NCBI RefSeq assembly: GCF_018873765.1
Contig: NC_057926.1
Location: 38,486,946 to 38,550,945, forward strand
Direction: 5' to 3'
DNA: 64,000 bases
Origin: Telopea speciosissima
Taxonomy: Eukaryota; Streptophyta; Magnoliopsida; Proteales; Proteaceae
Positions 1-58,036 of this stretch are shown one piece after another. Positions within the stretch are counted from its first letter, which is position 1. The number at the start of each line of letters is the position of its first letter. Position numbers and translations under genes: made by a program. The notes below the pieces were generated by a model that searched no databases, had not been told where the DNA came from, and was given only the letters and a program-made list of their open reading frames with translations.

Positions 1-757
1 AGCAATTTAGGGTTCTTAAATTGAACAATTCAGCTAGGGATTGGGTTCATATGGGGCTGTTTTCAGGTCATTGCCATGTCTGAATCAAAATTTGGTTCAA
101 AACAGTAATTAGTTGGGCAAAATTTTATTATCCAAGCTTGGTTTACAACCTTTAATGGCAGTCAAGTGATTAGGCTGAACTTAGACAGAATTAGAGAAGA
201 GATTAGGGAAGAATTAGATGGGAGCAGCAAGGATTTGAGGCCTACCTATCTACAGCAGCAGGGATAGGAGATGCAGCCTTGTTCTTATGCTCCAAAGTTG
301 TCAAATTCAGTCCCAAATCAGCAATACCAGGAGGAGAAGTGAAGCCCTAAGGTAAGGCTCCTTCCTTTCCTCCTGTTCTTCTCTTTTCTCCTTTCTTTTC
401 TTTCTTCTCTAAGGCAGATTCGTTTCTCTTAACTTTGGATATGTGAATAGTGAAATGGTTTAATTATATATAGTTGTAATGACTAAGGTGTGTTTGGTTT
501 ATTAAAACTAAAATCAATTTTTAAAACTAATTCTTAAATCTGATTTTTAATAGAATTTTGTACCTATTGGTTAATTCTAATTAAATAATGATGTCATATG
601 ACATCAAGGGTAATCCGGGTTCGGATAAATGTTGGAAATAGGATTCACCACTGGGGATGTGAGTCCCACAGAGGTAAATTGACTAAAATACCCCAATAAC
701 TCTAATTGGTCGTACAATACTTTATAAAATACAAGTAACTTCATACTTACAACGGGT
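1..757. other. Intergenic DNA, no gene seen
   Basis: AT-rich sequence without a convincing coding frame. Because a minus-strand chromovirus pol remnant follows at 1050-2032, part of this stretch could be the 3' non-coding region or LTR of that element, but I find no matching second LTR in the window. Confidence 0.4.
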
Positions 758-33442: not shown

Positions 33443-35344
33443 GGGTAAAGTACACGTACCCCCTTATAATGCACCTAATATTCCTCATACCCCCCTAAGC
33501 GGCTCAATATTCCACGTACCACCCCTGCTTTATCTTCCTAATGCCACTTAAATCCTCACTAAGTGTTAAATGCTAAAAAATGATCAAACTACCCTTTGTT
33601 TTATCTTTTCTACAATTTGAAAAAACTTAATTGCCCTGATCTATTTGTTAAAATTTGAAAATACCAAAATGCCCTCATCTTCCCCAAATCATTATTTTCT
33701 TTTACATACCCAATACCACCACCACCACCACCGTGAAAACTTAATTGCCCTGACCTATTTGTTAAAATTTGAAAATACCAAAATGCCCTCATCTTCCCCA
33801 AATCATTATTTTCTTTTACATACCCAATACCACCACCACCACCACCACCACCATGAACGGGTTGGAAGGAGAGTGGGAGATAATAGGGGAGCAGATCTCT
33901 GCCCGCCCATCTTCTGTACTCTACCCTTTTCCAACTCCACCTCCACCATGCCCTTCCGCCCCTTTCTTCTCCGACAGTTCTGTATCATTTACATTGGGGT
34001 GTGAGCAGATTCCTGGAGCACATTCATCCACCCTTGAACCAACTCTGCAAGACCAGCCAAAGGGTCCAGCTCAAACATTCTTGCAGAAATTCCAGCCAAA
34101 GAATCTCTCCACTCTTCAGGACCAACCAAAGAATCTCTTCACCTGCAAATCTGAAGGCAGGGACCATATGGGAAAGTATATGAATGTGCTCCAGGAATCT
34201 GGAAATAGGATTTACTCCCATTGTCTGGGCGTCTTTGGAAAATGTTCCTGATCTGTGTCAATCGGTTACCCAAAATCACTAATCACTTCTTTTATAATTT
34301 CAGAAAAAGAAATCCAAAAAAATAAAAGACTGTAAATGACGAGAAAGTTTTGTCCTCCCAGACCTTCGTTGCATCGCACTACTAGTCCTTACCATTCCCC
34401 ATTTCTTCATTCTTCTTCATCATCTTTCGGCTTTCTTCAAAAAAGAAAAGGGGTTTAAACTTTGAACAGAGGGGAAAAAAGGTTTTCTTGTTTTTGACTT
34501 TTCCGTTTAAGAGAAAACGATGGAGAGAGGAGGAGAAACAGTTACAGAGAGGGAAAAGGGGGGGGGGGGGTTTCTTGATTCGATTTCTACTGGTTTAGGA
34601 TATTTTCTCAAATCTTTTGGGTTTCAAGAGCAAAGATTCTTTGAGGCAGCATGATGAAGAAAAAGAACGAAATAGTGTACAGGAAGGGATTCTTTGAATT
34701 AAAGGTAAAAAACCACCCACCTCCTTTTGTCTTGCTTTATCCATAGTGTTTTACAATTTATTGTATAGTCGTAGGGTATTTCAGTGACAAGGTTTTTTTG
34801 GCTTTGGATTTCATCTTCGGAGCTTGATTTAGGAGATTGGAAGTTCAAGGAAGAGACCTGATTTTTTCACAGGCGGATCTAGATTCTGGGTTGTGAATTG
34901 CAAATTGCAATACCCCACACCTGTCGTTTGCAACTCTCTCCCCGACTTCACAACTACAACAAACCACCCACCTCTTCTCTCTCTCTCCTATTATCTCCCA
35001 CTCTCCTTCCAACCCGTTCGCGGTGGTGATGGTGTTAATTGTGAGTGGTGGTGGTGGTGGTATTAGGTATGAAAAAGAAAGTAATGATTTGAGAAAGATG
35101 AGGGCATTTTGGTATTCTCAAATTTTAACAAATAAGTCAGGATTTTTAAATTTTAGAAATGATAGAAGAAAGGGTAGTTTGACCATTTTTTAGCATTTAA
35201 CATTTAGTGTGGACTTAAGTGGCATTAGGGGGGTAAAGCAAGGGTGGTACGTGGAATATTGAGGGGTGGTACGTGGAATATTAAGCCGCTTAGGGGGTGC
35301 GAGAAATATTGGGTGCATTATAAGGGGGTACGTGTACTTTACCC
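33443..35344. mobile_element. MULE-type element, 1.9 kb, with 9-bp target duplication and very long TIRs
   Basis: The target duplication TTATTTATT lies at 33434-33442 and 35345-35353. The left end GGGTAAAGTACACGTACCCC matches the reverse complement of the right end exactly. The inverted arms extend about 400 bases (33443-33895 against 34985-35344), to the pair AACGGGTTGGAAGGAGAGTG / CACTCTCCTTCCAACCCGTT. The left arm is longer because of an internal tandem duplication. The interior 33896-34984 may be captured host DNA: an exon-like piece near 34650-34705 ends at AAG|GTAAAA, but I do not recognise the gene. No transposase. Confidence 0.9.
33621..33857. repeat. Tandem duplication of about 117 bp in the left TIR
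   Basis: The block beginning AAAACTTAATTGCCCTGA occurs at 33621 and again at about 33737, each copy ending in a (CCA)n run. The right TIR (35030-35150) has one copy, so the duplication arose after or during element mobilisation. Confidence 0.85.
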
Positions 35345-39378: not shown

Positions 39379-39487
39379 TTAGAATATTAATCCTTTCCAA
39401 TTCTCTAAAGTGTGCAGTGCGATAGTTCAGGGTGGAGATGTTGACACATGGCAACTCGCACATCCAACAATCTGAACTCATTGATTT

Positions 39488-40276
39488 TGATACATCCAAT
39501 ATTCACCGGGCCAATCAACGACCGCCATGTGTCACAGACGACCTGCTCCATAGCCAAGGGGAACGAACCGGGGTCCCAGCACCCGGGCGCGGCCAACACC
39601 CAGGCATGGCCTCACCCAGGCGCGGCCACCACTCGAGCGCGGCCTCACCTAGGTGCGGCCACACATCAGGGCGCGGCCTCACCTAGGCTCGGCCTCACCC
39701 AGGCGCGGCCACCACTCGGGCGCGGCCTCACCTAGGCGCGGCCACACATCCAGGCGCGGCCTGCACCCAGGCACAGCATCGTGGGCACGTGAGGTGGGGG
39801 CTACCCATCTACGACCCGATCGTATCGCTAAGACTCATGTCACCACCAGGACTCTAGACCGCCTCTTAGAGGTCACGTCACCTAGACGGATTCAAGCACC
39901 AAGGACGTTATCCCCACACGCGGGTATTTATCCACCAAGGATCCTGATGCCACCAGGACACTCCCTCCCACGAGGAGATGGCCAATCAGGATAGAGCCCC
40001 GTTACCCAGGGCCTCTATCCACTCAACGGGACAATCGCCATCAAACTGGGACTCTCCACACCGCCATACGCTACTATAAAAGGCAAGGTACACAACCCCA
40101 TCGGGGAGATCAAAACTCATACTGAATAATCACTATTCATCTATTTGCGCCAGGAGATCTAACTTTGGCATCGGAGAGCCCTAGGTCGGAACCACACTGG
40201 TTCTCTCTATTGACCCCTTGGTCCACTTGTAGGTGACGGCACTCGCAGGACCGCTCGATGATTTCTTGACGCAACA
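39488..40276 (+). repeat. 5' LTR
   Basis: 789 bp, starts TGATACATCC and ends CGCAACA (TG...CA). Contains a GC-rich minisatellite at about 39590-39775 and a TATA box at 40075 (ACTATAAAAGG), from which the genomic RNA would start. Confidence 0.95.
39590..39775. repeat. GC-rich minisatellite in the 5' LTR (GGCGCGGCC type)
   Basis: Irregular tandem units around CAGGCGCGGCCTCACC / CGCGGCCACC with 14-27 base spacing. The same units recur in the 3' LTR and at 49365-49660 upstream of the antisense gene. Confidence 0.85.
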
Positions 40277-40342: not shown

Positions 40343-42450
40343 ATGGCACGAAGGAAGACTACCACCACCAACAACGGAGCAAGGAATGGATCACCACCCC
40401 CAGAGTGCTCTCGCCGCAGAGCCAACGACCAGGACCATGTCCCTCTGGAGGAAGAGATCCCCCTTAATGACCAGTTCGTGGTCGACGAGCCTAACAATGA
40501 CGAGGCCGACGATGTGGGGGTGGAGGTGACACCTGACCCCAATGCTCCAGCCACTGTGGGTCAGATCAACGACCTGCAACGACAGATCCTCGATGAACAA
40601 CGACTCTTTCGAGAATACTTGACGCAGCGTGTGATGTCTCATTGTCGAAGGACTTCACCATCAGGAAGGGTGGAGTTCGTACTTGACAAGAGCCGAACCC
40701 TAGGAGATCATCTCCCAGGGGCGTGAGATCAGAGAGACTTGCGCGACAGGCAACCCCCACTCCGCAGCGGGGGGAGCCTTCCCAGCATCCCAGGAGAACA
40801 AGAGACCTCTCGCCATGGTCAGAACGAGGGAGGACCCCAACACCCAAGGCGAGGGTGTCTAGCCCGCAGAGATCGGTCCGGAGGTCTGTGTTTGATGGAC
40901 GACTGGAAGAAGGTCACATACCACGACGAAGCCGGACCTACAGAGAAGAAAGCCCCTCACCTTCACGACAGGGTTCATCACGGCGTGACCATTCCCCATC
41001 CCACCAACACTCAAGGCGGGAGGGGACATCCAGGAGAGAGCATGAACGGGGTCGCAGCGAACGTCCGGCCAGGCATGGGGGGCAGACACGGGACGAGGAG
41101 CTTGATCAAAGACTCCGCGACCTGGATGAGAAGCTGGAAGGGTTGAAGAAGCAGACCAAAGGCGAGACGCATTCCATACCTGGGCAACACCCCTTCTCGG
41201 CAGAGATCATGTCAGCCACACTACCTTCCAGGTTTCGACTACCCACCTTTGAACTCTACAGTGGTACCACTGACCCCAATGACCACATCAACTACTTTAA
41301 TGGCATGATGACGCTGTATGGGGGGTCGGACGTGGTCTCCTGTCGGGCATTCCCGGCATCCCTCAAAGGAGCAGCCACATCATGGTTCTCCAGGCTACGA
41401 TCGAGATCTATAGGCTCGTTCGCAGAGCTATGCGAACAGTTCGTCACCCGCTGCCAAAGCAGCGTCAAGCAGAAGAAGACCACCGTCAATCTACTGAGCG
41501 TGGTACAGAATCCTGGGGAATCTCTCAGGGAATACGTTACCAGGTTCACCAAAGAGCCCCTGGAGGTTCGAGACTTGGATGACCAGACACAGCATGTAGC
41601 CCTAGCAGGAGGTATTAGGGACCTAGACCTGATCAAGGACCTAGCACGTCATGAGACCAGGACTATGAAAGAGCTCTTGGAGCGGTGCAACGAGTTTGCA
41701 AATATGGCCGAGGTACTACAAGCTAGAACGAAAATAATCGAGGCCAAGCCACAAAACAACAAGAGGTCAGCACTTGATGACCGCAAAGAGGGTAAGAGGT
41801 CGAGGACAGAGCGCCGACAAGAGAAGAGCGACTGCCCATCTAGGAGGACAGACCGCCGCCCAGAGAGGAGTGAGAGGGCAAGCACCCCCGAGTTCACACC
41901 ACTGAACACCATCAAGTCCCAGATACTCATGCAGATCCAGGACCGTGACCTACTCCATTGGCCACCACCCATGCTAGCAGGACCAGAGAAGCGGAACCCT
42001 AACAAATACTGCCTCTTCCACAAAGAGAATGGGCACGACACAGAGGAGTGCTATCAATTAAAGAGAGAGATAAAGCAACTGGTAAGAGCAGGAAGCTTGA
42101 ACAAGTATGTGAAGGGGAGACGTGACAACCGCTCAGGCCAAGGAGATAGAGGTCGCGACGGAGACAGAGTGGAACCAAGACGAGAAGAAAGAAGAACAGA
42201 TCGAAAGAGAGACCGCCCAGAAGAGTGGAGAGATGCAACAGAACCTAGTGGCACCAAGGGACCTACTATCCTCACCATACTTGGAGGACCGGGGCAAGAG
42301 TCCACCAGAAAAGCTAAAGCTCATGCCAGGTTCGTGGGAGTGGCAGAGAAGCCCAGCAAGATAGCCAGCACCAAGGCGGTGATCTCCTTCTCGGATGAAG
42401 ACCTAGAAGGACTAAACTTCTCGCATGAAGATGCCCTGGTAGTACGGTAG
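40343..42450 (+). pseudogene. gag polyprotein, split by a frameshift
   Basis: First frame 40343-40726 (127 codons, starts MARRKTTTT, acidic middle) ends at a stop; the second frame continues to 42450. The second part is Arg/Ser/Pro-rich at first, then has the capsid domain (about 41210-41730: LPSRFRLPTFELYSGTTDP, CRAFPASLKGAATSWF, LREYVTRF). A zinc-knuckle-like CLFHKENGHDTEEC follows at about 42010, flanked by basic Arg/Glu tracts. The frame switch near 40.7 kb suggests a one-base indel. Structural protein of the virus-like particle. Confidence 0.88.
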
Positions 42451-42808: not shown

Positions 42809-43063
42809 GGAGATCAGAAGAAAGAAAGGGAGTGCTATGCCACCTTCATGAAAAAGAACAATGGCAACACCCGTGGAATGGCACTCTGCCTAGAGAGCAT
42901 GATTAGTGACCAGAGAGATGAACTGACAGAGAGAAGGGGAAGGCCAGTAGAAGACCTTATCCCCTGGTCCCTCAGCCAGGAAGACCCCTCCAAGGTTGTT
43001 CAGGTTGGCTCGCTGCTAAACAAGGAATAGAAAGAAGGGCTTAGACACCTCCTCCAAGCGAAC

Positions 43064-44857
43064 ATGGATGTCTTTGCATGGTCGACCTCCGACATGCCAG
43101 GAATACCACGTTCCATAGCGGAACACCGACTACATGTCGACCCAACCAGGAAGCCTGTTCAACAGAAGCGGCGTAACTTCACCCTCGATCGACAAGCAGC
43201 AATCAAGGAGGAGGTCGAGAAGTTAAGCCAATCAGGGTTCATCAGAAAGGAGAAGTTCCCAACCTGGCTCGCCAACGTGGTCATGGTACCAAAGCCAAAT
43301 GGGAAGTGGAGGATGTGTGTCGACTATACCGACCTGAACAAGGCATGCCCAAAAGATGAGTACCCACTGCCTAGGATCGACCTACTGATCGACACCACCG
43401 CCGGCCATGAGATGCTGAGTTTCATGGATGCCTACTCCGGATACAACCAGATCCTCATGTGTGAGGATGATGAGTCTTACACCGCATTCCGGACGGACAA
43501 AGAGAACTACTACTACCACGTTATGCCGTTTGGGTTAAAGAATGCAGGGGCCACCTATCAGAGGATGGTCAACAAGATGTTCGAGGAGCAGATCGGGCGC
43601 AACATGGAGGTATATGTGGATGACATGCTCGTGAAAAGCATCCACGCCAACCAACACCTAATCGACCTAGAGGAGGCATTTGCAGTACTGAGGAGGAACC
43701 AGATGAAGCTAAACCCTACAAAGTGCGCCTTCGGCATAACATCAGGAAAATTCCTGGGGTTCATGGTTTCAGTCCGTGGAATAGAAGCTAACCCATCCAA
43801 GATCAAGGCCATCCAAGAAATGGTACCTCCTCGAACGGTCAGGGAAGTGCAGAGGTTGAATGGAAGGGTCGCCGGCCTTTCCAGGTTCGTGTCACGATCA
43901 GGTAATAAGTGCTTACCATTCTTCAAAACATTGAAGAACCTTCGAAGCCCTAAAGATTTCACATGGACGGAAGAGTGCCAGAAGGCATTCGGAGAATTGA
44001 AGGAGTACCTAGAGAGCCCACCACTGCTTGGGCGACCAGAGCCTAACGAAGGGTTACAGCTCTACCTGGCCGCCACCCCTATCGTGGTCAGTGCAGTACT
44101 GCTGAAGGAAGAAGACAAAGTCCAGAGGCCCATCTATTACGTCAGCCATGTCCTGATCGATGCAGAGACCAGGTACACTAGGATCGAGAAGGTAGCCTAT
44201 GCATTGGTAACGGCAGCCAGGAAGCTACGACCATACTTCCAAGCCCATACCATCATAGTCCTCACAGACCTACCCCTGAAGAAGATACTGCACAAGTCGG
44301 ACATCTCCGGGCAATTGATAGCATGGGCGGTGGAGCTAAGTGAGCATGACATCAGGTTCCAACCAAGGATAGCCATCAAAGGCCAGGCTCTTGCAGATTT
44401 CATTGCAGAGTGTACCCTATCTGAGATCGAGTCAGAAACAGGGGAGCCGGAAGAGAAGGATCACGGATCGTGGGACATGTTCGTGGACGGGTCAAGCAAT
44501 GCGGCAGGAAGCGGTGCGGGTCTCATATTAACCAGCCCCGAGGGATTTTGTATCCAATATGCTCTCCGATTCACCTTCCAAGCATCCAATAATGAAGCAG
44601 AGTACGAGGCATTGCTAGCTAGACTCCAGGTGGCCAAAGCCATCCAAGTCACACACCTATCCACCAGGAGCGACTCCCAGCTCGTGGTGAATCAGGTGAA
44701 TGAAGAGTATGAGGCGAAAGATGAAAGGATGGCATCATACCTAGCACGTGCTCAAGCATTGATCGAGGGTTTCGTGAAGTTTGAGATGGTTCGAGTTCCC
44801 AAGGAGGAGAACGCCGTCGCTGACGCCCTATCCAGGCTAGCCAATGAGGAACTCTAA
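43064..44857 (+). CDS. Reverse transcriptase with two RNase H domains (Tat-type pol)
   Basis: Open for 597 codons. [19 protein letters not shown], a [13 protein letters not shown] block, [14 protein letters not shown] and the catalytic YVDDM at about 43613. First RNase [16 protein letters not shown]... IYYVSHVL... [11 protein letters not shown] (about 44060-44260). Second RNase [17 protein letters not shown] (Asp), [11 protein letters not shown] (Glu), RSDSQLVV (Asp) and [10 protein letters not shown] (about 44480-44850). The second, archaeal-like RNase H is known from Tat elements. Continuous frame with all catalytic residues in place. The natural start is upstream as part of a gag-pol polyprotein, so the first Met here is not a true initiator. 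Confidence 0.9.
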
Positions 44858-44860
44858 AAT

Positions 44861-46172
44861 TTGGCCAGCGCAGTCTATGTTGAGATCCTGCATGAGCCAA
44901 CGTATAAGGAAAAGCAGGTTAACGAGATCATGGAGGGACCTAGCTGGATGGACCCTCTACTCAACTACCTCCAGAACGATGTCTTACCAGAAGACAAGGC
45001 CGAGGCAAGGAAGATCAAGATGAGAGCTGCAAAGTACACCATCCTAGATGGGGTACTGTACAAGCGGGGGGCAACAACACCACTACTCCGGTGCCTAGGA
45101 CCCAAGGGGGCAGAGTACGCCCTAGCCCTAGCCGAAGTCCATGAGGGGATATGTGGAAGCCACATGGGGGGACAAGCCCTAGCCTACAAAATCCTCCGCC
45201 AGGGACTATACTGGCCACGAATGCAAGAGGAGGCCATCCAATATGCTAAGAAGTGTGAGCAATGTCAGTTGTTCACCCCAGTACCCCATCTACCCGCCAC
45301 CAAGCTGCCATCAATCCTCAACCCCATACCTTTTGCCATGTGGGGACTAGACATCTTAGGCAACTTCACCGCAGCACCGGAAAATAGAAAGTACCTGGTC
45401 GTCGCGATCGACTACTTCACCAAGTGGGTTGAAGCTAAACCCTTGGCCAAGATAACAGAGACAGAGATGGAGAAGTTCGTCCGCGACGACGTCATCTGAG
45501 TTCGGTACCACGGATCCTCGTCTCGGACAATGGAAAACAATTCAACAACCCCAAATTCCAAGCATTCTCATCACGCTACAACATCGACTATCGGCCGTGT
45601 CGGTAGCATACCCACAGCCAATGGTCGGTGGAGGTCACCAATGTAACGCCATGGAAGGAGTCAAGAAAAGGCTAGAAGGAGCCAAAGGCAAGTGGGTAGA
45701 AGAGCTACCAAGCGTCTGTGGGCATACCGAACTACATGACAGATGCCCACAGGAGAGAGCCCATTCCGCCTAGCATATGGCATCAAGCATTGGCGCCGGT
45801 AGAGGTCTCGCGCCATGTCCCATAGGGTTCTCGCACTTCAATGAACGTACCTATGTCGACGGATCGGCGAACCTAGACTTTATAGATGAGGTCCGCGAGA
45901 GAGCACTACTAAGGAACGTCGCCTACCAGCAACGTACTGCCAGGTACTATAATGCCAGGGTCAAGGAAAGGCTATTCCACCAGGGAGATTTAGTACTACG
46001 GAGGGCAAGTGCATCACAACCACAGAAGGCGGGGAAGCTGTCACCCAACTGGGAAGGACCCTACATAGTCTCCAAGCAGATACGCCCAGGGACTTACCGC
46101 TTGAAGACTCCAGGGGGCAAGAAGGTAGACCATACCTGGAACTCAGAACATCTGAAGAAGTGCTACCAATAG
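44861..46172 (+). pseudogene. Integrase, broken
   Basis: A frame to 45499 holds the zinc-binding part (H-x3-H: HEGICGSHMGG region; C-x2-C: CEQCQ) and the start of the core (WGLDILGNF, first Asp). A TGA at 45497 and at least two further frame changes up to about 45770 (second Asp seen out of frame in VSDNGKQF) destroy the core. A C-terminal piece is open at 45777-46172 (QRTARYYNARV, GDLVLRR, WEGPYIV, HTWNSEHLKKCY). No functional integrase from this copy. Confidence 0.88.
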
Positions 46173-46334
46173 AAGCATAGCAGTAGTGGTAGTGATAACA
46201 GAAGCAGTAGCAATAAGAGTAGTAGTAGACGACATCACTGTTTCAAGGACAATGTGAATTTCATTCAAAATAAAGAGATGTTGCAAGAATACTTGTCTTC
46301 TTCTACCACTCAATCGAATCATGGCCACTACATT

Positions 46335-46840
46335 AAGGCGATATGCCAACACTGAGGCTTCATGCCTAAGGCGATATGCCAACACTGAGGCTTCATGCCT
46401 AAGGCGATATGCCAACATCGAGGCTTCATGCCTAAGGCGATATGCTAACACTAAGGCTTCATGCCTAAGGCGATATGCCAACACTGAGGCTTCATGCCTA
46501 AGGCGATATGCCAACACTGAGGCTTCATGCCTAAGGCGATATGCCAACATTGAGGCTTTAGACCTAAGGCGACATGCCAACATGAGGCTTTATGCCTAAG
46601 GCCACATGCCAACATCGAGGCTTCATGCCTAAGGGGACATACCAACATGAGGCTTTATGTCTAAGGCAATATGCCAACATCGAGGCTTCATGCCTAAGGC
46701 GATATGCCAACACTGAGGCTTTATGCCTAAGGCAATATGCCAACATCGAGGCTTTATGCCTAAGGCAACATGCCAACATCGAGGCTTCGTGCCTAAGGCG
46801 AGAGGCCAACACTGAGGCTCTACGCCTAAGGCGGTAACCA
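46335..46840. repeat. 33-bp minisatellite, about 15 copies
   Basis: Unit AAGGCGATATGCCAACACTG plus AGGCTTCATGCCT, tandem without spacers, with growing variation toward the 3' side. Because 33 is a multiple of three, repetitive open frames appear on both strands; these are not genes. It lies between the integrase end and the antisense gene. Confidence 0.95.
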
Positions 46841-47052
46841 ACCAAGGTCCGAGGATCACCAAGGCACGACGCCACTACCAAAATCCCATGACTATCAAGG
46901 GCCAGAGAGTATCAACGCGCAAACAATCACCAGGAGACAATGCAGTCAAAGAAAATCAAAAGCGATCACACAGAAAACTCATAGTAGTTACAAACTCAAG
47001 TTCAAAAAAGGAAAAAGGTTGAGACGTCTACAGGATCGGTACAGCCGTGGGG

Positions 47053-49199
47053 TCAAGGGATCACAGAGGGATGGGTCACCTCCGACCCAGCAGGGGACAT
47101 CATGTCCACCTCAAGAGGACGCGCAGCAGCACCCCCCTCAGGCAGGACAGCCTCCACCTCTGACACCGGGATGCTCTCCACCACAGCTACACTCGGAAGC
47201 GCCGCAGCAAACTCAGAGAACCCCAAAACAGAGAAGTCATAATCGGGGGTCACCTCCAGGACACAAGCGGCTAAGTCCCGGACCCCTCCCTCATAGGCGG
47301 GCTGAAGCTGCGCCTGATACAGCGTCGAGAACGCAGGGGATGCCTGGAACTCAGCCACAGCTCGCTCACCTGCAGATGCCAGCTCCGCCTCATGCCTTCC
47401 CCTCAATGAATGAAGCTCCTCCTCCAAGGCAAGAACCCTAGCCGAGCTCTCGGCCGCACCAGTAGAGGTCGCACGCAGCTCCTCAGACACCTCCAGGAGC
47501 TTCCCGGACGCCACCGTAAGCTCCCCCGACACCCTCTGTGCGTCGGCCTCGGCTCTCTCACAGGCATCAATCTGTCCCTGGAGCTCCCTCTCCACGTCAC
47601 GCAGGGTGCGCTGTATCTGCACCTCACGAGAAGCATGACCCTCCAATCGAAGCACCGCCTCAGCAATACGATGATGGACCTACAATCAACATGGCAGGCG
47701 GTAAAACAATCTAAAAATAAAGGGAGCAATGAACATGACGAGACAAAAAAAGGGATAACTCACCGAGGCTATATCATGGTAGAGGGTCTGAGCCAGACAA
47801 GCATCGCTAAGCCTCTGCAAGGCCATCCTCGCGGTAGGGAGCCTGCCCCTATCCACCCACTCCCGCGACACGCCGGCTTCGGCCAAGGTAGAGCCCTCCG
47901 GCATGCCCAGGGTGATCACCAGGGACTCACCCAGCGGGGGAAGATCAGTGGCAGTACCGCCAGAGGAACTCACACCTTTCCCCTTGGAAAGGGGCAATAC
48001 AGAAGATCCGGAAGGAACGACAGAGGGAGGTAGAGGCACAGAGCTAAAAATGCCATCATCATCAGGAGAAGTACGGGGAAGGAGGACACGCACACCAGAG
48101 CTGGTCACGCGGGCATGTCCTGGTCCCCCCTTCCGCTTCGCTCCAACAACCACAAGCGCAGAAGCGCCACTAACATTGGTCCCTCCAGCAGACGGACCAC
48201 CCTGAGAAGCGGCCTTCCTCCGCAGATTACCACGGAGCAAACTGAAGTCCGGACGCGTATCCACTGCATAGACCGCCCAACCAATCAGATGACATATACA
48301 TTCAAATACCAACATGCTAATCAAGTACAAAAGATAATGCTCTTACCAGGACTCAGCTTCCAGAGAGACAGGAAGGCCTCCGAGTCCAACTCCTGGACGT
48401 GGAACGGATCACGACCCAGGCACAGCTTGAGGGAGTCACCCTCAAAATCACTCAGCTCAAGCCCCTGATTGACCCTCTTAAGGTCAATAACTTCCCTAAC
48501 AGTCCGTAATGGGCATCGGGGGACCGTGGCAAAAAAGAAGCGATCCCTCCAATACTTCACGTGACTAATGATCCCCGTGAGAAGCTCCACAGAGGCATAG
48601 GACCCCTTGAGCACGCGGTGAGCAAAGTGATAGCATCCATGGTTCCCCTTCTTCAACAGATAAAAGTGAGAGAAAAGGGGAACAGTGGCAGCAAGCCCCA
48701 AGCGGGCGAAGAAGACATAGAAACCCAAGATCACCCTCCAAGAGTTGGGCAACACCTGCCCAGGGGTGAGGTGCCAATGCTCTAACACTAACTCGACGAA
48801 GCGAGGGATAGGAAGGCGACGGCCCTGGAGAAAAAATGAACGGTAGAGACAGATCTCACCCGCACGGTGAGAGAAGGCATACTCGCCAGGCCCAGGAGCA
48901 CGTAACATGACCTCGACGGGAATATGGAACTCCTCACGGAGGGAGACCAAGTCAGAAGGTAACAAGATGCTAGCAACAGGGCCTAACCTATCAGCAGGAC
49001 CGACAGCTGAGGATGCCGCCCCAGAGGGCTGACGATCCCTACGGGGACCGGAGACACTAGAAGGTCCCACTCCTCCATCAGTATCACTAGGGGAGGGTAT
49101 AGAGGAGGGAGTACCCACAGAAGAAGGCGATCCGGGGGAACGCTCCTCTGAAGATCCAACCCCGACTGAAGCAGGACCAAGGTCACCCGGGAACGACAT
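47053..49199 (-). CDS. Antisense spliced gene inside the retrotransposon (Transposase_28-like protein)
   Basis: Exons on the minus strand: 49199-48347, 48263-47764, 47679-47053, with introns GTAAGAG...CAG and GTGAGT...TAG. The frame is kept (phases 1 and 0): 1980 bases, 659 residues, no internal stop. Residues ~1-75 are Ser/Pro/Gly-rich. About 85-280 matches the plant 'putative gypsy type transposon' domain (Pfam Transposase_28): LREEFHIPVEV, GEICLYRSFFLQGRRLPI, LTPGQVLPNSWRVILGF, YYFAHR-type and WRDRFFF blocks. Next come a low-complexity basic linker and, at ~450-560, a long heptad-rich coiled coil (RDVERELQGQIDACERAEAD). Tat elements such as maize Grande are known to carry antisense reading frames of unknown role. 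Met chosen as the first ATG in frame. The function is not known. The gene is intact while the sense integrase is not. Confidence 0.8.
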
Positions 49200-49364
49200 G
49201 AAGGACAAGAGGGGAACGAACTACTTACTCGAGAAAGCAATCTCCCCGAAGCTGGCAAGAAAAATGAAAGGAATGCCACCTGCAAAATATAAACAGCAGA
49301 TCCATCACATACAAAAGGAAGAACAGGGAAGAAGAGCGAGGGTCCATCACACCCACGCCGCGGC

Positions 49365-49660
49365 CACCATAGGCGCGGCATCACCGGTAAGGCGCGGCCA
49401 CACCCGCAAGGCGCGGCCACACCAAAGCGCGGCCACACCCAGGCGCGGCCACCCAGGCGGCCACACTCGCAAGGTGCGGCCACACCCAGGCGTGGCCACC
49501 CCAAGCGCGACCGCCCCAGCGCGGCCACCCTAGGCGCGGCCACCCCAGTGCGGCCACCCCAGGCGTGGCCACCCCTGCACGGCCACCTAGGCACGGCCAC
49601 ACCCGTAGGCGAGGCCTCACCGAGGCGCGGCCACACCCGCGGGCGCGGCCTCACCAAGGA
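49365..49660. repeat. GC-rich minisatellite upstream of the antisense gene
   Basis: Tandem GGCGCGGCCACACC-type units like those in the LTRs, starting about 170 bases upstream of the antisense gene's ATG. May serve as its promoter region or simply be spread by recombination with the LTR. Confidence 0.85.
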
Positions 49661-50230
49661 GCCACCCTACCAAAAAAAAAAAAGAAAAAGAAAGAAAGGG
49701 GATCGATTTACCTCAGAAAAAAGGCGACCGCACGGAAAGACAGGCACACGGCGATGACGTAGCCACACCACGAGGCACAATAAAGTGATAGAGGTCACAA
49801 GAGACAAGGCATTCAAGCCAAGCACCACTCAAGCCTTCCAAGCAAACCAAGGCACCAAGAGAACACAAACCAAACACAAGGACCCAAAATCAAGCAAAGT
49901 GGATACTAGTGGAGGTGACCCAAAAACAAGCACATGGTGGGCACCAAAGAGAGGACAAAAGACAAAAAGGGGAATGCAAAGGGGGAATTAAAGGAGAGCA
50001 AAAGGGGAGACAAAAAGTAAGAAAGAGAAATGAGAAGTGAAAGAAGAGAAAGTGAGAGGAAGGAACATATACCTACAAAAAACAAAAGAAGAAAAAGTGC
50101 AGGAGGAAAGGTTTGAACCCCCAACCTCTCCTACCTCATTAGTGGATTTACAGGCAAACCCCACAAGGAAAGTCTATTCACAGCGGACCCCTCACTATGT
50201 AAAGGCATCTACTCTCATGGACATCCTATC
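49661..50230. other. Retrotransposon 3' untranslated region
   Basis: Purine-rich, AAG/AGG-rich DNA with an A-run near 49673-49695. No gene. Confidence 0.6.
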
Positions 50231-50250
50231 CCAAGAGAGTGGGGGGCAAA
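50231..50250 (+). promoter_or_regulatory. Polypurine tract
   Basis: AAGAGAGTGGGGGGCAAA ends at the first base of the 3' LTR, the position where plus-strand DNA synthesis is primed. Confidence 0.85.
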
Positions 50251-51107
50251 TGATACATCCAATATTCACCGGGCCAATCAACGATCGCCACGTGTCATAG
50301 ACGACCCGCTCCATAGCCAAGGGGAACGAACCGGGGTCCCAGCACCCGGGCGCGGCCTCACCCAGGCGTGGCCACCACTCGGGGGCGGCCTCACCTAGGC
50401 GCGGCCACACATCAGGGCGCGGCCTCACCCAGGCTCGGCCACCCCTCGAGCTCGGCCACACATCCGGGGCGCAGCCTCACCCCAGGCGCGGCCTCACCTA
50501 GGCACGGCCTCACCCACCCGCAGCCACCACTCGAGCGCGGCCTCACCTAGGCGCGGCCATACATCCAGGCGCGGCCTCACCCAGGCGCGGCCTGTACCCA
50601 GGCACAGCATCGTGGGCACGTGAGGTAGGGGCTACCCATCTACGACCCAATCGTATCGCTAAGACTCATGTCACCACCAGGACTCTAGACCGCCGCTAAG
50701 AGGTCACGTCACCCAGATGGATTCAAGCACCAAGGACGTTATCACCACACGCGGGTATCTATCCACCAAGGATCCTGATGCCACCAGGACACTCCCTCCC
50801 ACGGGGAGATGGCCAATCAAGATAGAGCCCCGTTACCCAGGGACTCTATCCACTCAACGGGACAATCGCCATCAAACTGGGACTCTCCGCACCGCCATAC
50901 GCTACTATAAAAGGCAAGGTACACAACCCCATCGGGGAGATCAAAACTCATACTGAATAATCACTATTCATCTATTTGCGCCAGGAGATCTAACTTTGGC
51001 ATCGGAGAGCCCTAGGCCGGAACCACACCGGTTCTCTCTGTTGACCCCTTGGTCCACTTGCAGGTGACGGCAGTCGCAGGACCACTCGACGATTTCTTGA
51101 CACAACA
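50251..51107 (+). repeat. 3' LTR
   Basis: 857 bp, same ends as the 5' LTR; longer because the GC-rich minisatellite (about 50345-50600) has more copies. TATA motif at 50906. Confidence 0.95.
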
Positions 51108-51224
51108 GATTTCTTTTTTTTTTTCTTCTCAAGCTCGGCACCATTGGATGTTCAAGCTGCCACGTGTTAACATCTCCACCCCAAACTGGCACACTACACA
51201 CTTTTAGGGAATTGGAGAAGATTA

Positions 51225-51662
51225 TTTTCCCTCTTACTCATCTCTTGTGACAGGAGAGACTACGATTCTCAGTTGCTTCATTTAATGGGCCTAATGGGTT
51301 TTCTTATCCTTCATATTTTCAGATCCATGACCAGGTTAGGGCCCATAATCTATTTCATGAATACCTGAAACTGAATTTTACATTATTTGAAGTCAAGAAA
51401 AGTCAACTATCCCCATTCATCCAATAATGATTTTCTTGTGACGCATAGGGCAATATTGGCCAATGACCAGACCCACGCCAGTCTCCCCTTATAAAATCCC
51501 CACTTTGGGCTCACAAGACTGGCCAATCACTGGAGCCCATGAGAGAGTTTTTTTGTTTTTGTTTTTTGGAGATATAAGCCCATGGCTTCATTACTTCCTA
51601 ACATGACCTCAACCAACTAACCCATCTTCTTCTTCGTCTTTTGCTTTCTCTTCCTTTCTAGT
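51225..51662. other. Intergenic DNA, no gene seen
   Basis: No open frame of note. A T-rich run near 51548-51567. Confidence 0.4.
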
Positions 51663-52158
51663 TCTCTCTGTTGAGGATAAATGTGCAATCACAAGGAAAA
51701 ACTCAAACAAATAATTACATACAACCCGAGAAATTTAACGTGATTTGACAAGAGTGCATACATACATTTGAGAGATTCAAAGATTTTCCACTAAACTAGA
51801 AAAACTCTCCACATCACAATGTGATCCTCACTTGTGTCTAGGGCCTTTCACACAAAAACAATATATAGGACAAACCACTAACCCTAATGCCCACACAATT
51901 GTAATGTTATTCTCTCTGTTGAGGATAAATGTGCAATCACAAGGAAAAACTCAAACAAATAATTACATACAGCCCGAGAAATTTAACGTGATTTGACACG
52001 AGTGCATACATTCATTTGAGAGATTCAAAGATTTTCCACTAAACTAGAAAAACTCTCCACATCACAATGTGATCCTCACTTGTGTCTAGGGTCTTTCACA
52101 CAAAAACAATGTATAGGACAAACTACTAACCCTAATGCCCACACAATTGTAATGTTAT
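51663..52158. repeat. 248-bp tandem duplication, probably copia LTR sequence
   Basis: Two nearly identical copies, 51663-51910 and 51911-52158, each starting TCTCTCTGTTGAGGATAAAT. TGTTGAGGATAA is a typical copia LTR start, and a minus-strand copia pol remnant follows at 52410-52830. Only a few base differences between copies. Confidence 0.75.
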
Positions 52159-55872: not shown

Positions 55873-56206
55873 TCGGTTCAAACTGGCTAAAAAATCAGAT
55901 GGTCCGGCTTTTATAACCATTAAAACTGTCCTTGTAGCCGGCCTAGCACTGTTCTTTTTCCCTTTCCTCTCCAACAAAAGCAAGGTTATTTCCGTCTTTT
56001 TGTAAAATAATTCTCACCCCCACATGGAGAACACCACAAGAAGAACCCAAGAGTGAAGATTCCAATTCTCTTTTTTCTGGTTTGGGAACTGCAAGGCTGT
56101 AGAGAATCGTTTCTTACTCTGTTTAACAATCACCATTTCGTTATAAAATCCACAGAACAAGAAAACTTAAGAAACAATTAAAGAGACTAAAAAGAAAAAA
56201 GAGGAG

Positions 56207-58036
56207 ATGGGTTCTCTGGTTTTCTGGGTTCTTCTGTTGGGTTCTCTGGTTCTACCCTTGAATTCTTCCCCTTTTAACCCTTTTGTGTTCTCACACAGAC
56301 CTCTCTCGTCTTCTTTTAATGGCCTTTCTGAAAATTTCTACGCAAAATCATGCCCAAAAGTCGAAAAGTTAATCTGGAATGCTTTGGTAGAGAACATGAA
56401 CGATCCTAACAAGCCTAACATTACTCTCCCTGGCACTCTTCGCCTTTCTTTCATGACTGCTTCGTTGAGGTCTCTCTCTCTCTTTCTGTCTCTAATTAAT
56501 TTTTTCAAATTCCAAAATTACCTTTTATTGTTACTGTACTACACTGCCTATTCTACAGGGTTGCGAGGGCTCGGTGTTGATCACATCTACGGCGCATGAT
56601 GCAGAGAGAGATGCTGATCTTAACCTGTCTTTGCCCCCAGATGGCTTTGATCTTGTCATCCGGGCCAAGAAGATTGTTGAAGCAGCGTGTCCTGGCGTGG
56701 TTTCCTGCGCTGACATACTCGCCATTCTAGCCCGTGATGTTGTCTACTATGTGAGCTGATCATGTTGCACTATTCAACTATTCAACCATTTCCCTAATTT
56801 TTTCACCAAAAAAAACAAAAACCATTTAATTTATAAAATCTAAGCCTGATTTGGTATGATTTTTTTATTTCAATTTCATTGGATCAGTTCTATTTAGGAA
56901 TTTGTTTGATTTGATTTTTGCACTTTATTTTAATAAAACAAAAATCAAAGGGAATAGAAATTCTATAATAACTGCCGAAGTGTTTTAATTTTGAAATTGA
57001 AATTGTTTACACTCTTGCTCGTTAATGAGCACATGGTTAATTTGATGGATAAAGCAATAATTCATGTTAGAAATAAACATCACCTTTCTTCTCTTGATGG
57101 TCTCACCACCACCTTCCTGCCACTATCGTGACCAACACTGTTGCTACTGCCACCATCACCACCACTACCGCCACCACTACTACACCACCACCTCCTTGCC
57201 CACCATCGCCGCCGCCACCACCATCCTCTTCCAAATTAATATAAATGTATTCTCAGAAATTGAACAATCAAATGGATTTCTTATTTATGAAATATTTCAG
57301 AATGATGCAACCAAAACAATTTCAATTTCTTGACAAAAATTTATATTTCATGAAATCAGTCCGGAATCAAAATAGAAATCATACCAAATATGGCCCTAGC
57401 TTACAAATAAACTGGGCTTGATTGTGAATAAACCAAAAGATTATTTATTATATGGGCTTTGTGTTTTAAACGCAGGCGAAGGGTCCATGGTGGCCGGTTG
57501 ACAAGGGGAGGAGGGATGGAAGGAATTCCAAGGCTGCAAACGTTGCTGCCAACGTGCCAAGTGGCTACTCCAATTTGACCGATCTTATTGAAAGGTTCCA
57601 ATCCAAGGGCCAATCTAAATTTGATCTCGTGACACTCTCTGGGGCCCACAACCTCGGTTTAACCCATTGCAAAGAATTTGCCAATCGCCTTCGCCAACCT
57701 GATCCTACAATGAATGAAACGCTCCGGACGGGTCTTATAAATGGGTGCCCGTATCCGAAGATCGACCCGCTGGTTGTGGTACCATTCGATGAAACGCCGG
57801 CTCAGTTTGATAACGGGTATTACGAGAACTTAAGGCTGCACAGAGGAGTGTTGACGTCCGATCAAGCCCTGTTTTCAGGCGGCGACGAATATATCCGAAA
57901 AATGGTTTTACGGTTTGCCGAAGACAAGGAGCAGTTTTTCAAGTTGTTTGGTTATGCCATGAAGAGGTTGGGAGCTGTTGGAGTTAAAACTGGAACTGAA
58001 GGAGAGATTAGAAGGGAATGTACTAGCTTCAATTGA
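56207..58036 (+). pseudogene. Class III peroxidase gene with a frameshift in the distal-His motif (peroxidase 19-like)
   Basis: Three exons: 56207-56469, 56559-56750, 57476-58036, all GT/AG. A signal peptide (MGSLVFWVLLLGSLVLPLN) points to secretion. Secretory heme peroxidases oxidise phenolics with H2O2 in the cell wall or vacuole. The family's F-HDCFVE motif is encoded except for one missing base near 56452: after codon 82 (LRLSF) the frame reads ATG ACT GCT instead of CAT GAC TGC. With that base the coding region would be 339 codons including the stop, a normal size. Otherwise all eight Cys positions (SCP, DC, GCEGS, ACPG, SCAD, THCKEF, GCPYP, REC) and the proximal His (LSGAHNLG) are present. 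CDGS has become CEGS. The HCKEF and DNGYYENL blocks resemble peroxidase 19. It may be a young pseudogene or a sequence error. Confidence 0.85.
56843..57395. mobile_element. Tourist-like MITE in peroxidase intron 2
   Basis: The ends (A)GCCTGATTTGGTATGATTT and, reverse-complemented, GGCCATATTTGGTATGATTT pair; CTA flanks both sides (56840-56842 and 57396-57398). The interior holds a CCACCACC-rich tract. It accounts for most of the 725-base intron. Confidence 0.8.

What the first reader, a model, noticed from the sequence alone, without database searches (positions are those of the whole stretch)
47053..49199. Intact three-exon antisense gene inside a Tat retrotransposon
On the strand opposite gag-pol, three exons join through canonical introns into an uninterrupted 659-residue protein with a Transposase_28-like domain and a coiled coil. 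The element's own gag, protease and integrase are broken, yet this gene has no stop. Antisense frames in Tat elements are known, but an intact spliced one with unknown function is worth describing: it could affect element silencing, packaging or transposition, or be a captured host gene.
Basis: partly seen in the sequence, partly recalled or inferred. Interest (0 to 1): 0.78.

Follow-up and report, generated by a model that had tools for sequence, protein, structure and literature searches.

The report
Spliced antisense gene in a retrotransposon
A common plant jumping gene carries, on its opposite strand, what looks like a three-exon gene of a family so far described as single reading frames; related copies suggest that the protein was kept working while the elements spread, although this copy may be intact only by luck.

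Summary
In detail: minus-strand exons 49199-48347, 48263-47764 and 47679-47053 join through two GT-AG introns into 659 residues with a Transposase_28 (TRP28) domain and a long C-terminal helix. The gene lies between pol and the 3' LTR of an 11.6-kb Tat element, not opposite gag-pol. Antisense TRP28 frames there are a known hallmark of Retand elements (Vicient 2025). Copies in the same genome add: introns at the same positions in divergent subfamilies although intron sequence is saturated; deep dN/dS 0.20, 0.38 and 0.39 for exons 1-3 (one pair); and, in 30 close copies, shared changes enriched for synonymous ones only in the spliced frame (p=0.005; exon 2 alone shows none), private changes neutral. 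So selection acted on transposing lineages. This insertion is one of few intact copies (2 of 29 others), and chance can explain it (P 0.04-0.13). Leads: a GTAAGT site upstream of the start codon (15 of 16 loci) and a repeat array shared by the LTRs and the gene's upstream region. Best reading: a nuclear regulatory accessory protein. Splicing and function remain unproven, as no RNA data exist here.

The parts
39483..39487 (.). target-site duplication GATTT, left
   Evidence: matches 51108-51112
39488..40276 (+). 5' LTR (789 bp) with GC-rich 16-bp repeat array at 39580-39772
40687..42450 (+). gag frame (Retrotrans_gag PF03732)
43031..44857 (+). RT, RNase H and additional RNase H (RVT_1, RT_RNaseH, RVT_3), open 608 aa
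44858..46172 (+). integrase pieces (H2C2 zinc domain, C-terminal SH3-like), frame broken about 45499 and 45773
46334..46833 (.). 33-bp tandem repeat array, about 15 copies, downstream of the antisense gene
47053..47679 (-). exon 3 of the antisense gene (627 nt with stop): long helix, likely coiled coil
47680..47763 (-). intron 2 (84 nt, GT-AG, phase 0)
47764..48263 (-). exon 2 (500 nt), with a basic AKRKGG motif (NLS-like, by eye)
48264..48346 (-). intron 1 (83 nt, GT-AG, phase 1, splits a Val codon)
48347..49199 (-). exon 1 (853 nt) with start codon and Transposase_28 domain at aa 116-183
49223..49228 (-). conserved GTAAGT 5'-splice-donor-like site upstream of the start codon (starts 29 nt before the ATG)
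49348..49659 (.). GC-rich about 16-bp repeat array upstream of the antisense gene, same kind of unit as in the LTRs
50251..51107 (+). 3' LTR (857 bp) with GC-rich repeat array at 50343-50603
51108..51112 (.). target-site duplication GATTT, right

Best explanation
This is the antisense accessory (TRP28) gene of a Retand-type Tat retrotransposon, and it is a three-exon gene rather than a single ORF. Shown by sequence: the exon-intron layout is conserved across subfamilies, and the joined frame carries the mark of purifying selection from the time when the elements transposed (clear in exons 1 and 3; in exon 2 only in the deep comparison). Also shown: the window copy is one decaying insertion among many, which happens to remain open. 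Inferred: the gene is transcribed from its own promoter between the ATG and the 3' LTR and spliced; the protein enters the nucleus (basic motif in exon 2), oligomerises through the exon-3 helix, and contacts DNA through the TRP28 domain to regulate the element's own expression or silencing. I put a nuclear regulatory role at about 0.5, and action on the repeat array shared by the LTRs and the gene's upstream region at about 0.2. Introns can persist because they lie on the strand opposite the RNA that is reverse-transcribed, so splicing never removes them from the genomic copy.
For: Intron positions: splice sites GT/AG/GT/AG in 27 of 29 nearest copies. L056 and L057 share both intron positions (L056's first acceptor has decayed to CAA), while intron sequences align no better than shuffled ones (z -0.0, 0.1, 0.3 and 1.8). 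In subfamily B (about 35% identical in exon 1) the motif at the end of exon 1 with the donor after it was found in 12 of 13 loci (not in L048), with GT at the same place (in L040 the exon-end G is mutated). The first acceptor was found in 5 of those 12, splitting the same codon (L040 now reads Met), and both introns in L041 and L049. In subfamily C the first acceptor precedes TGGA in 4 of 5 loci (L052 not located). Selection: group A exon-1 dN 0.14-0.19 against dS 0.77-1.27 (3 pairs); group B w at most 0.15 in 29 of 36 pairs of 9 loci. Window-L057 w is 0.20, 0.38 and 0.39 for exons 1, 2 and 3. Among 30 close copies, private S/N 39/97 and shared 44/49, p=0.005; without CpG/CHG 30/60 and 26/12, p=0.0004; five other frames p=0.31-1.0. 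By exon: E1 p=0.004, E3 p=0.010. Setting: aRH order, TSD, 4.1-kb pol-3'LTR region and TRP28 fit Retand (PMC11963269). KRK in exon 2 in 28 of 30 copies.
Against: No RNA data, so splicing, promoter and translation are unproven. Exon 2 on its own shows no excess of synonymous shared changes (11/18 private, 6/16 shared, p=0.55). DNA binding rests on a published prediction, not on a test here. Exon 1 could not be modelled (pLDDT 38), and no solved relative was found. The far loci were chosen mostly for longer open frames. RT, the expected positive control for selection, points the same way but is not significant with 13 copies (p=0.20). In subfamily B 7 of 12 first acceptors were not found with my pattern; in subfamily C the donor is ambiguous: candidates in 3 of the 4 loci located, none in L050. 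In L057 intron 1 is itself open and in frame, so an unspliced product is possible there. Four group B pairs have w 0.20-0.50, and three have saturated dS.
Confidence: 0.77

Rival explanations
1. Only exon 1 is the gene: an unspliced antisense ORF of about 294 aa with TRP28, as described in ORF-based surveys. The other two exons are separate or fortuitous ORFs.
For: Published surveys treat them as ORFs (PMC11963269, PMC6317226). Exon 1 alone is the best conserved part (w 0.20 against 0.38-0.39), homology to subfamily B ends near its 3' end in 11 of 13 loci, and exon 2 shows no selection signal among close copies.
Against: Exon 3 shows the signal in its spliced frame among close copies (p=0.010), and exons 2 and 3 have w about 0.4 against L057. 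The donor position, phase and split codon recur between subfamilies. Introns are saturated beside conserved exons.
Confidence: 0.14
2. The antisense RNA, not the protein, matters: it pairs with genomic RNA to make dsRNA and siRNAs that restrain the element.
For: Proposed as a possibility for antisense aORFs by Vicient and Casacuberta 2020 (PMC7264820, read).
Against: Selection is specific to one of six reading frames and strongest on amino-acid changes in the TRP28 exon, which RNA pairing does not need. The two roles can coexist.
Confidence: 0.06
3. A host gene captured by this element, or an insertion co-opted by the host in place.
For: The window copy is fully open while gag, protease and integrase are broken, and with the whole-LTR divergence chance intactness is only 0.04.
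Against: The same gene is in all 40 scored of 988 candidate places (39 besides the window), the exon1-intron1 junction is found 323 times genome-wide, and divergent relatives exist. Window-private changes are 4 nonsynonymous to 1 synonymous. Other estimates of chance intactness are 0.09-0.13.
Confidence: 0.02

Closest known systems
Antisense TRP28 (PF04195) ORFs of Retand elements (Vicient 2025, PMC11963269; parts 1-3 of 5 read)
   Same: Position between pol and 3' LTR, antisense orientation, TRP28 domain, long pol-3'LTR region, tandem arrays. This is a member.
   Different: There described as ORFs, mostly of at least 600 bp; the word intron does not occur (count). Here a TRP28, basic-motif and coiled-coil gene of three exons with introns at the same places in several subfamilies. 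The separate antisense ORFs with Smc-like matches listed there could be downstream exons of such genes (my inference, not tested).
Maize Grande gene23 (Gomez-Orte 2013, not read; as cited in PMC7264820 and PMC11963269)
   Same: Antisense gene between pol and 3' LTR, own promoter, nuclear protein (as cited).
   Different: Sequence not compared here; whether gene23 has introns was not checked.
HBZ and APH antisense genes of HTLV (PMC10186651, passages read)
   Same: Works-like comparison: antisense, spliced, nuclear regulator made by a retroelement.
   Different: No bZIP match in Pfam here; another host; the promoter there is in the 3' LTR.
VANC anti-silencing proteins of VANDAL transposons (PMC5735166, abstract and outline read)
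   Same: Works-like comparison: element-encoded accessory protein with element-specific tandem-repeat targets.
   Different: No direct sequence comparison with VANC was made; Pfam showed no family besides TRP28 over its cut-off. VANDAL is a DNA transposon (recalled). Binding not tested here.

Membership tests
Retand lineage of Tat Ty3/gypsy elements | additional RNase H between RNase H and integrase | tested here: met
   RT, RT_RNaseH, RVT_3 in order in 43031-44857, integrase zinc domain after it
Retand lineage of Tat Ty3/gypsy elements | pol-3'LTR region of 2.9-6.6 kb | tested here: met
   46172 to 50251, 4.1 kb
Retand lineage of Tat Ty3/gypsy elements | antisense ORF with TRP28 in that region | tested here: met
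   PF04195 41.6 bits over cut-off 26.2
Retand lineage of Tat Ty3/gypsy elements | LTR of 315-1194 bp (range in Vicient 2025); 5-bp target-site duplication | tested here: met
   789 and 857 bp; GATTT on both sides
Retand lineage of Tat Ty3/gypsy elements | RT clusters with Retand RTs in a tree | not tested
   no reference RT set was fetched
Transposase_28 (PF04195) protein family | score above the curated cut-off | tested here: met
   also frames of L047, L054, L058 and L057
Spliced protein-coding gene | GT-AG introns at conserved positions between divergent copies | tested here: met
   for groups A and B; group C only partly
Spliced protein-coding gene | spliced transcript observed | not testable with these tools
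   no RNA data; no genomic copy of the joined exon1-exon2 junction found
VANC anti-silencing proteins | protein sequence kinship | tested here: inconclusive
   only Pfam scans: no family besides TRP28 over cut-off; no direct comparison with VANC
VANC anti-silencing proteins | binds the element's own repeats and removes methylation | not testable with these tools
   needs DNA-binding and methylation data
HBZ-type antisense bZIP factor | bZIP domain | tested here: not met
   no such family in Pfam at E up to 1

The most novel reading that the evidence does not exclude
The antisense locus of Retand elements is one multi-exon, alternatively spliced regulatory gene, and its separate 'antisense ORFs' are its exons. 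It has a conserved strong donor (GTAAGT) just upstream of the start codon, laid out like the major splice donor of retroviruses, that could skip the TRP28 exon. Its nuclear product acts on a repeat array that the LTR promoter and the gene's own upstream region share, as a retrotransposon counterpart of HBZ or VANC.
Probability: 0.13. Interest if true: 0.75.

Novelty: new variant of a known kind. Interest (0 to 1): 0.45.

Why it matters
Surveys of plant LTR elements score antisense reading frames by length and domain and leave their function open. If the frames are exons of one spliced gene, ORF-based surveys underestimate the protein and split it into unrelated-looking pieces. That could help explain why TRP28 was found in 23% of Retand elements in one ORF-based survey (PMC6317226) but in 97% of young clusters in another (PMC11963269). 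A retroelement gene that keeps introns because it is antisense to its own genomic RNA would also be a clean example of how such genes can stay spliced through reverse transcription. The frame-specific selection test gives a concrete reason to study the full three-exon protein rather than the first ORF.

Tried and rejected
Protein search of 5.8 billion sequences: the 7991 candidates sharing most words were scored, none at E 0.001. Solved structures: two prefoldin coiled-coil matches, E 0.31 and 0.46. Exon-1 structure from one sequence: useless, pLDDT 38; no fold search was made. Relation to other domains: Pfam at E up to 10 on five frames of relatives gave TRP28 for the four exon-1 frames, and otherwise only hits below cut-off. 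Fossil cDNA: the joined exon1-exon2 junction (up to 3 mismatches) has 0 genome matches, while the exon1-intron1 junction has 323. The matching control at the intron1-exon2 border and the exon2-exon3 junction did not complete, so the zero is only half controlled. Fewer stops in the gene than in RT (14 in 23.7 kb against 27 in 20.4 kb over the same 12 copies) was set aside: stop opportunity is 0.023 against 0.035, and the copies were chosen by likeness to an open gene. One search is discarded: copies on the other strand were not turned round; one search replaces it. Literature on spliced antisense genes in plant LTR elements: searches (listings; one search was not run); the papers opened do not describe introns in TRP28 genes. 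Gomez-Orte 2013, Kejnovsky 2006 and Steinbauerova 2011 were not read. PMC6317226 was seen in passages only; PMC7264820 in parts 1-2 of 3. The species was not established; a guess from recall was not confirmed (listing only).

Full report
What is there. The minus strand of 47053-49199 holds exons of 853, 500 and 627 nt separated by introns of 83 and 84 nt with GT-AG ends; joined they give 659 residues without a stop. Transposase_28 (PF04195) matches residues 116-183 with E 1.5e-10. Exon 2 carries a basic AKRKGG motif; KRK is kept in 28 of 30 copies. Exon 3 is modelled from its single sequence as helices within residues 2-143, mean pLDDT 63, which fits a coiled coil but does not prove one.

The element. 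LTRs are 39488-40276 and 50251-51107, flanked by GATTT on both sides, with a purine-rich tract just before the 3' LTR. The sense strand has gag, then RT, RNase H and an additional RNase H in one open 608-codon frame, then broken integrase pieces. The antisense gene lies in the 4.1 kb between pol and the 3' LTR, so it does not overlap gag-pol. A 33-bp array (46334-46833) lies between it and pol. The layout fits the Retand lineage as described by Vicient 2025; an RT tree was not made.

Is the intactness special? Not clearly. The DNA search scored 40 of 988 first-look candidates (39 besides the window); 30 were fetched as loci, 29 besides the window. Of these 29, 23 carry a premature stop and 2 have neither stop, frameshift nor lost splice site. 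LTR substitutions are 24 in 583 sites outside the repeat array (K 0.043) and 49 in 789 over the whole LTR (K 0.065). These predict about 2.2 or 3.3 stops in the gene since insertion, P 0.11 or 0.04 for none. Six or seven frame interruptions in gag-pol, counted by eye, give P 0.13 or 0.09. Changes private to the window copy are 4 nonsynonymous and 1 synonymous.

Was the protein ever constrained? Yes. Among the window and 29 close copies I took codon columns with exactly two codon states one base apart. Changes seen in one copy were 39 synonymous to 97 nonsynonymous or stop, close to the neutral expectation of 28-31% synonymous. Changes shared by two or more copies were 44 to 49 (p 0.005). Leaving out CpG and CHG positions, the counts were 30 to 60 and 26 to 12 (p 0.0004). 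The two shifted frames of the joined exons and the three frames of the opposite strand (introns included) showed nothing (p 0.31-1.0; the CpG/CHG filter was applied to the two shifted frames but not to the opposite strand). By exon the excess is in exon 1 (p 0.004) and exon 3 (p 0.010) and absent in exon 2 (11/18 private, 6/16 shared, p 0.55). The same test on RT in 13 copies points the same way but is not significant (56/88 and 20/19, p 0.20), while the gene in those same 13 copies gives 51/110 and 31/18, p 0.0001, or p 0.03 without CpG/CHG. Shared changes can include recurrent hits, which is why the filter was applied.

Deep comparison. L056 and L057 resemble the window over the whole gene. 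Thirteen loci form subfamily B: 11 match at 32-38% over residues 84 to about 280-294, where exon 1 ends, and L048 and L053 match over shorter stretches (L053 also holds a piece of a close copy). Five loci (subfamily C) match at 29-33% over shorter stretches ending at residues 195-230. Exon-1 dN/dS is about 0.15-0.19 between window, L056 and L057. In B, 29 of 36 pairs of 9 loci are at most 0.15, four are 0.20-0.50, and three have saturated dS. In C the three pairs give 0.07, 0.07 and 0.22. Window against L057 gives 0.20, 0.38 and 0.39 for exons 1, 2 and 3.

Introns. L056 and L057 have both introns at the same place with other lengths (103 and 105, 77 and 77 nt) and no alignable sequence (z -0.0, 0.1, 0.3 and 1.8 against shuffles); L056's first acceptor reads CAA. 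In subfamily B the exon-1 end motif with a donor after it was found in 12 of 13 loci, not in L048; in L040 the exon-end G is mutated. My acceptor pattern found the first acceptor in 5 of these 12, splitting the same codon (L040 now reads Met), and the full second intron in 2 (L041, L049). For the other seven the pattern failed and I did not search further. In subfamily C the first acceptor precedes TGGA in 4 of 5 loci (L052 not located); candidate phase-1 donors were found in 3 of these 4, not in L050, and they are weak or ambiguous. A genome scan for the joined exon1-exon2 junction found none, against 323 matches of the exon1-intron1 junction. This is expected if only sense RNA is reverse-transcribed; it neither proves nor refutes splicing. 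The control at the other intron border could not be run.

Two leads. First, a GTAAGT site lies 6-77 nt before the start codon in 15 of 16 loci whose start I could place. Five of 21 could not be placed, the start of L051 was placed by peptide because its ATG is changed, and the 16th, L049, has GTTAGT. I looked 200 nt upstream; 15 of 914 background windows of 106 nt hold the motif. An acceptor-like site often lies upstream of it. Used as a donor, it would remove the start codon and the TRP28 exon, so it may mark an alternative form or a U1-binding site; this is unexplained. Second, a GC-rich unit of about 16 bp forms arrays in both LTRs and at 49348-49659, upstream of the antisense gene. On the plus strand GCGGCC occurs 30 times in these three arrays, once elsewhere in the element and once in the other 52 kb of the window, where its reverse complement occurs 3 times. 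All 29 near copies keep such hits both 100-520 nt upstream (4-17) and at 1000-1500 nt, where the 3' LTR lies in the window (3-16); tandem-repeat scans were run on three of them. Within the 0.65 kb held upstream, L057 shows no array of this unit and L056 a related 40-bp one, so the array appears to be specific to the subfamily.

How it may work. Published work on relatives reports a nuclear product and an own promoter for Grande gene23 (as cited in PMC7264820) and predicts DNA binding for TRP28 (PMC11963269). With the basic motif and the long helix, the simplest model is a nuclear, oligomeric DNA-binding accessory protein that regulates its element. HBZ of HTLV (PMC10186651, passages) and VANC (PMC5735166, abstract) are works-like models for repression and for anti-silencing; kinship to either is not shown. 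None of these steps was tested here.

Novelty. The kind is known. The spliced three-exon structure with conserved introns, and the frame-specific selection, are additions that I did not find in the searches. Key older papers on Grande, Retand and extra ORFs were not readable, so earlier mention of introns cannot be excluded.

Noticed in passing
window 49223-49228 and L039, L041, L044, L045, L047, L048, L050-L052, L054-L058: A GTAAGT donor-like site lies just upstream of the antisense start codon in 15 of 16 loci placed, across three deep subfamilies, with an acceptor-like site often further upstream; its role is unexplained.
   Followed up: partly
window 39580-39772, 49348-49659, 50343-50603: The same kind of GC-rich repeat unit forms arrays in both LTRs and upstream of the antisense gene, possibly a shared control region.
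   Followed up: partly
window 46334-46833; L056 3024-3186; L057 3016-3427: The array between the antisense gene and pol keeps a 33-bp period in three subfamilies although the unit sequence differs.
   Followed up: no
L057 635-2131: In this relative intron 1 is open and in frame with both exons, giving a 499-codon frame, so both spliced and unspliced products would be readable.
   Followed up: no
window 51662-52157 and 33503-35263: A 248-bp direct tandem duplication at 98% identity, and large imperfect inverted repeats outside the element.
   Followed up: no
window 56171-58036: Frames that read like a plant secretory peroxidase gene in pieces, by eye from the translations (recalled motifs, no family search).
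   Followed up: no
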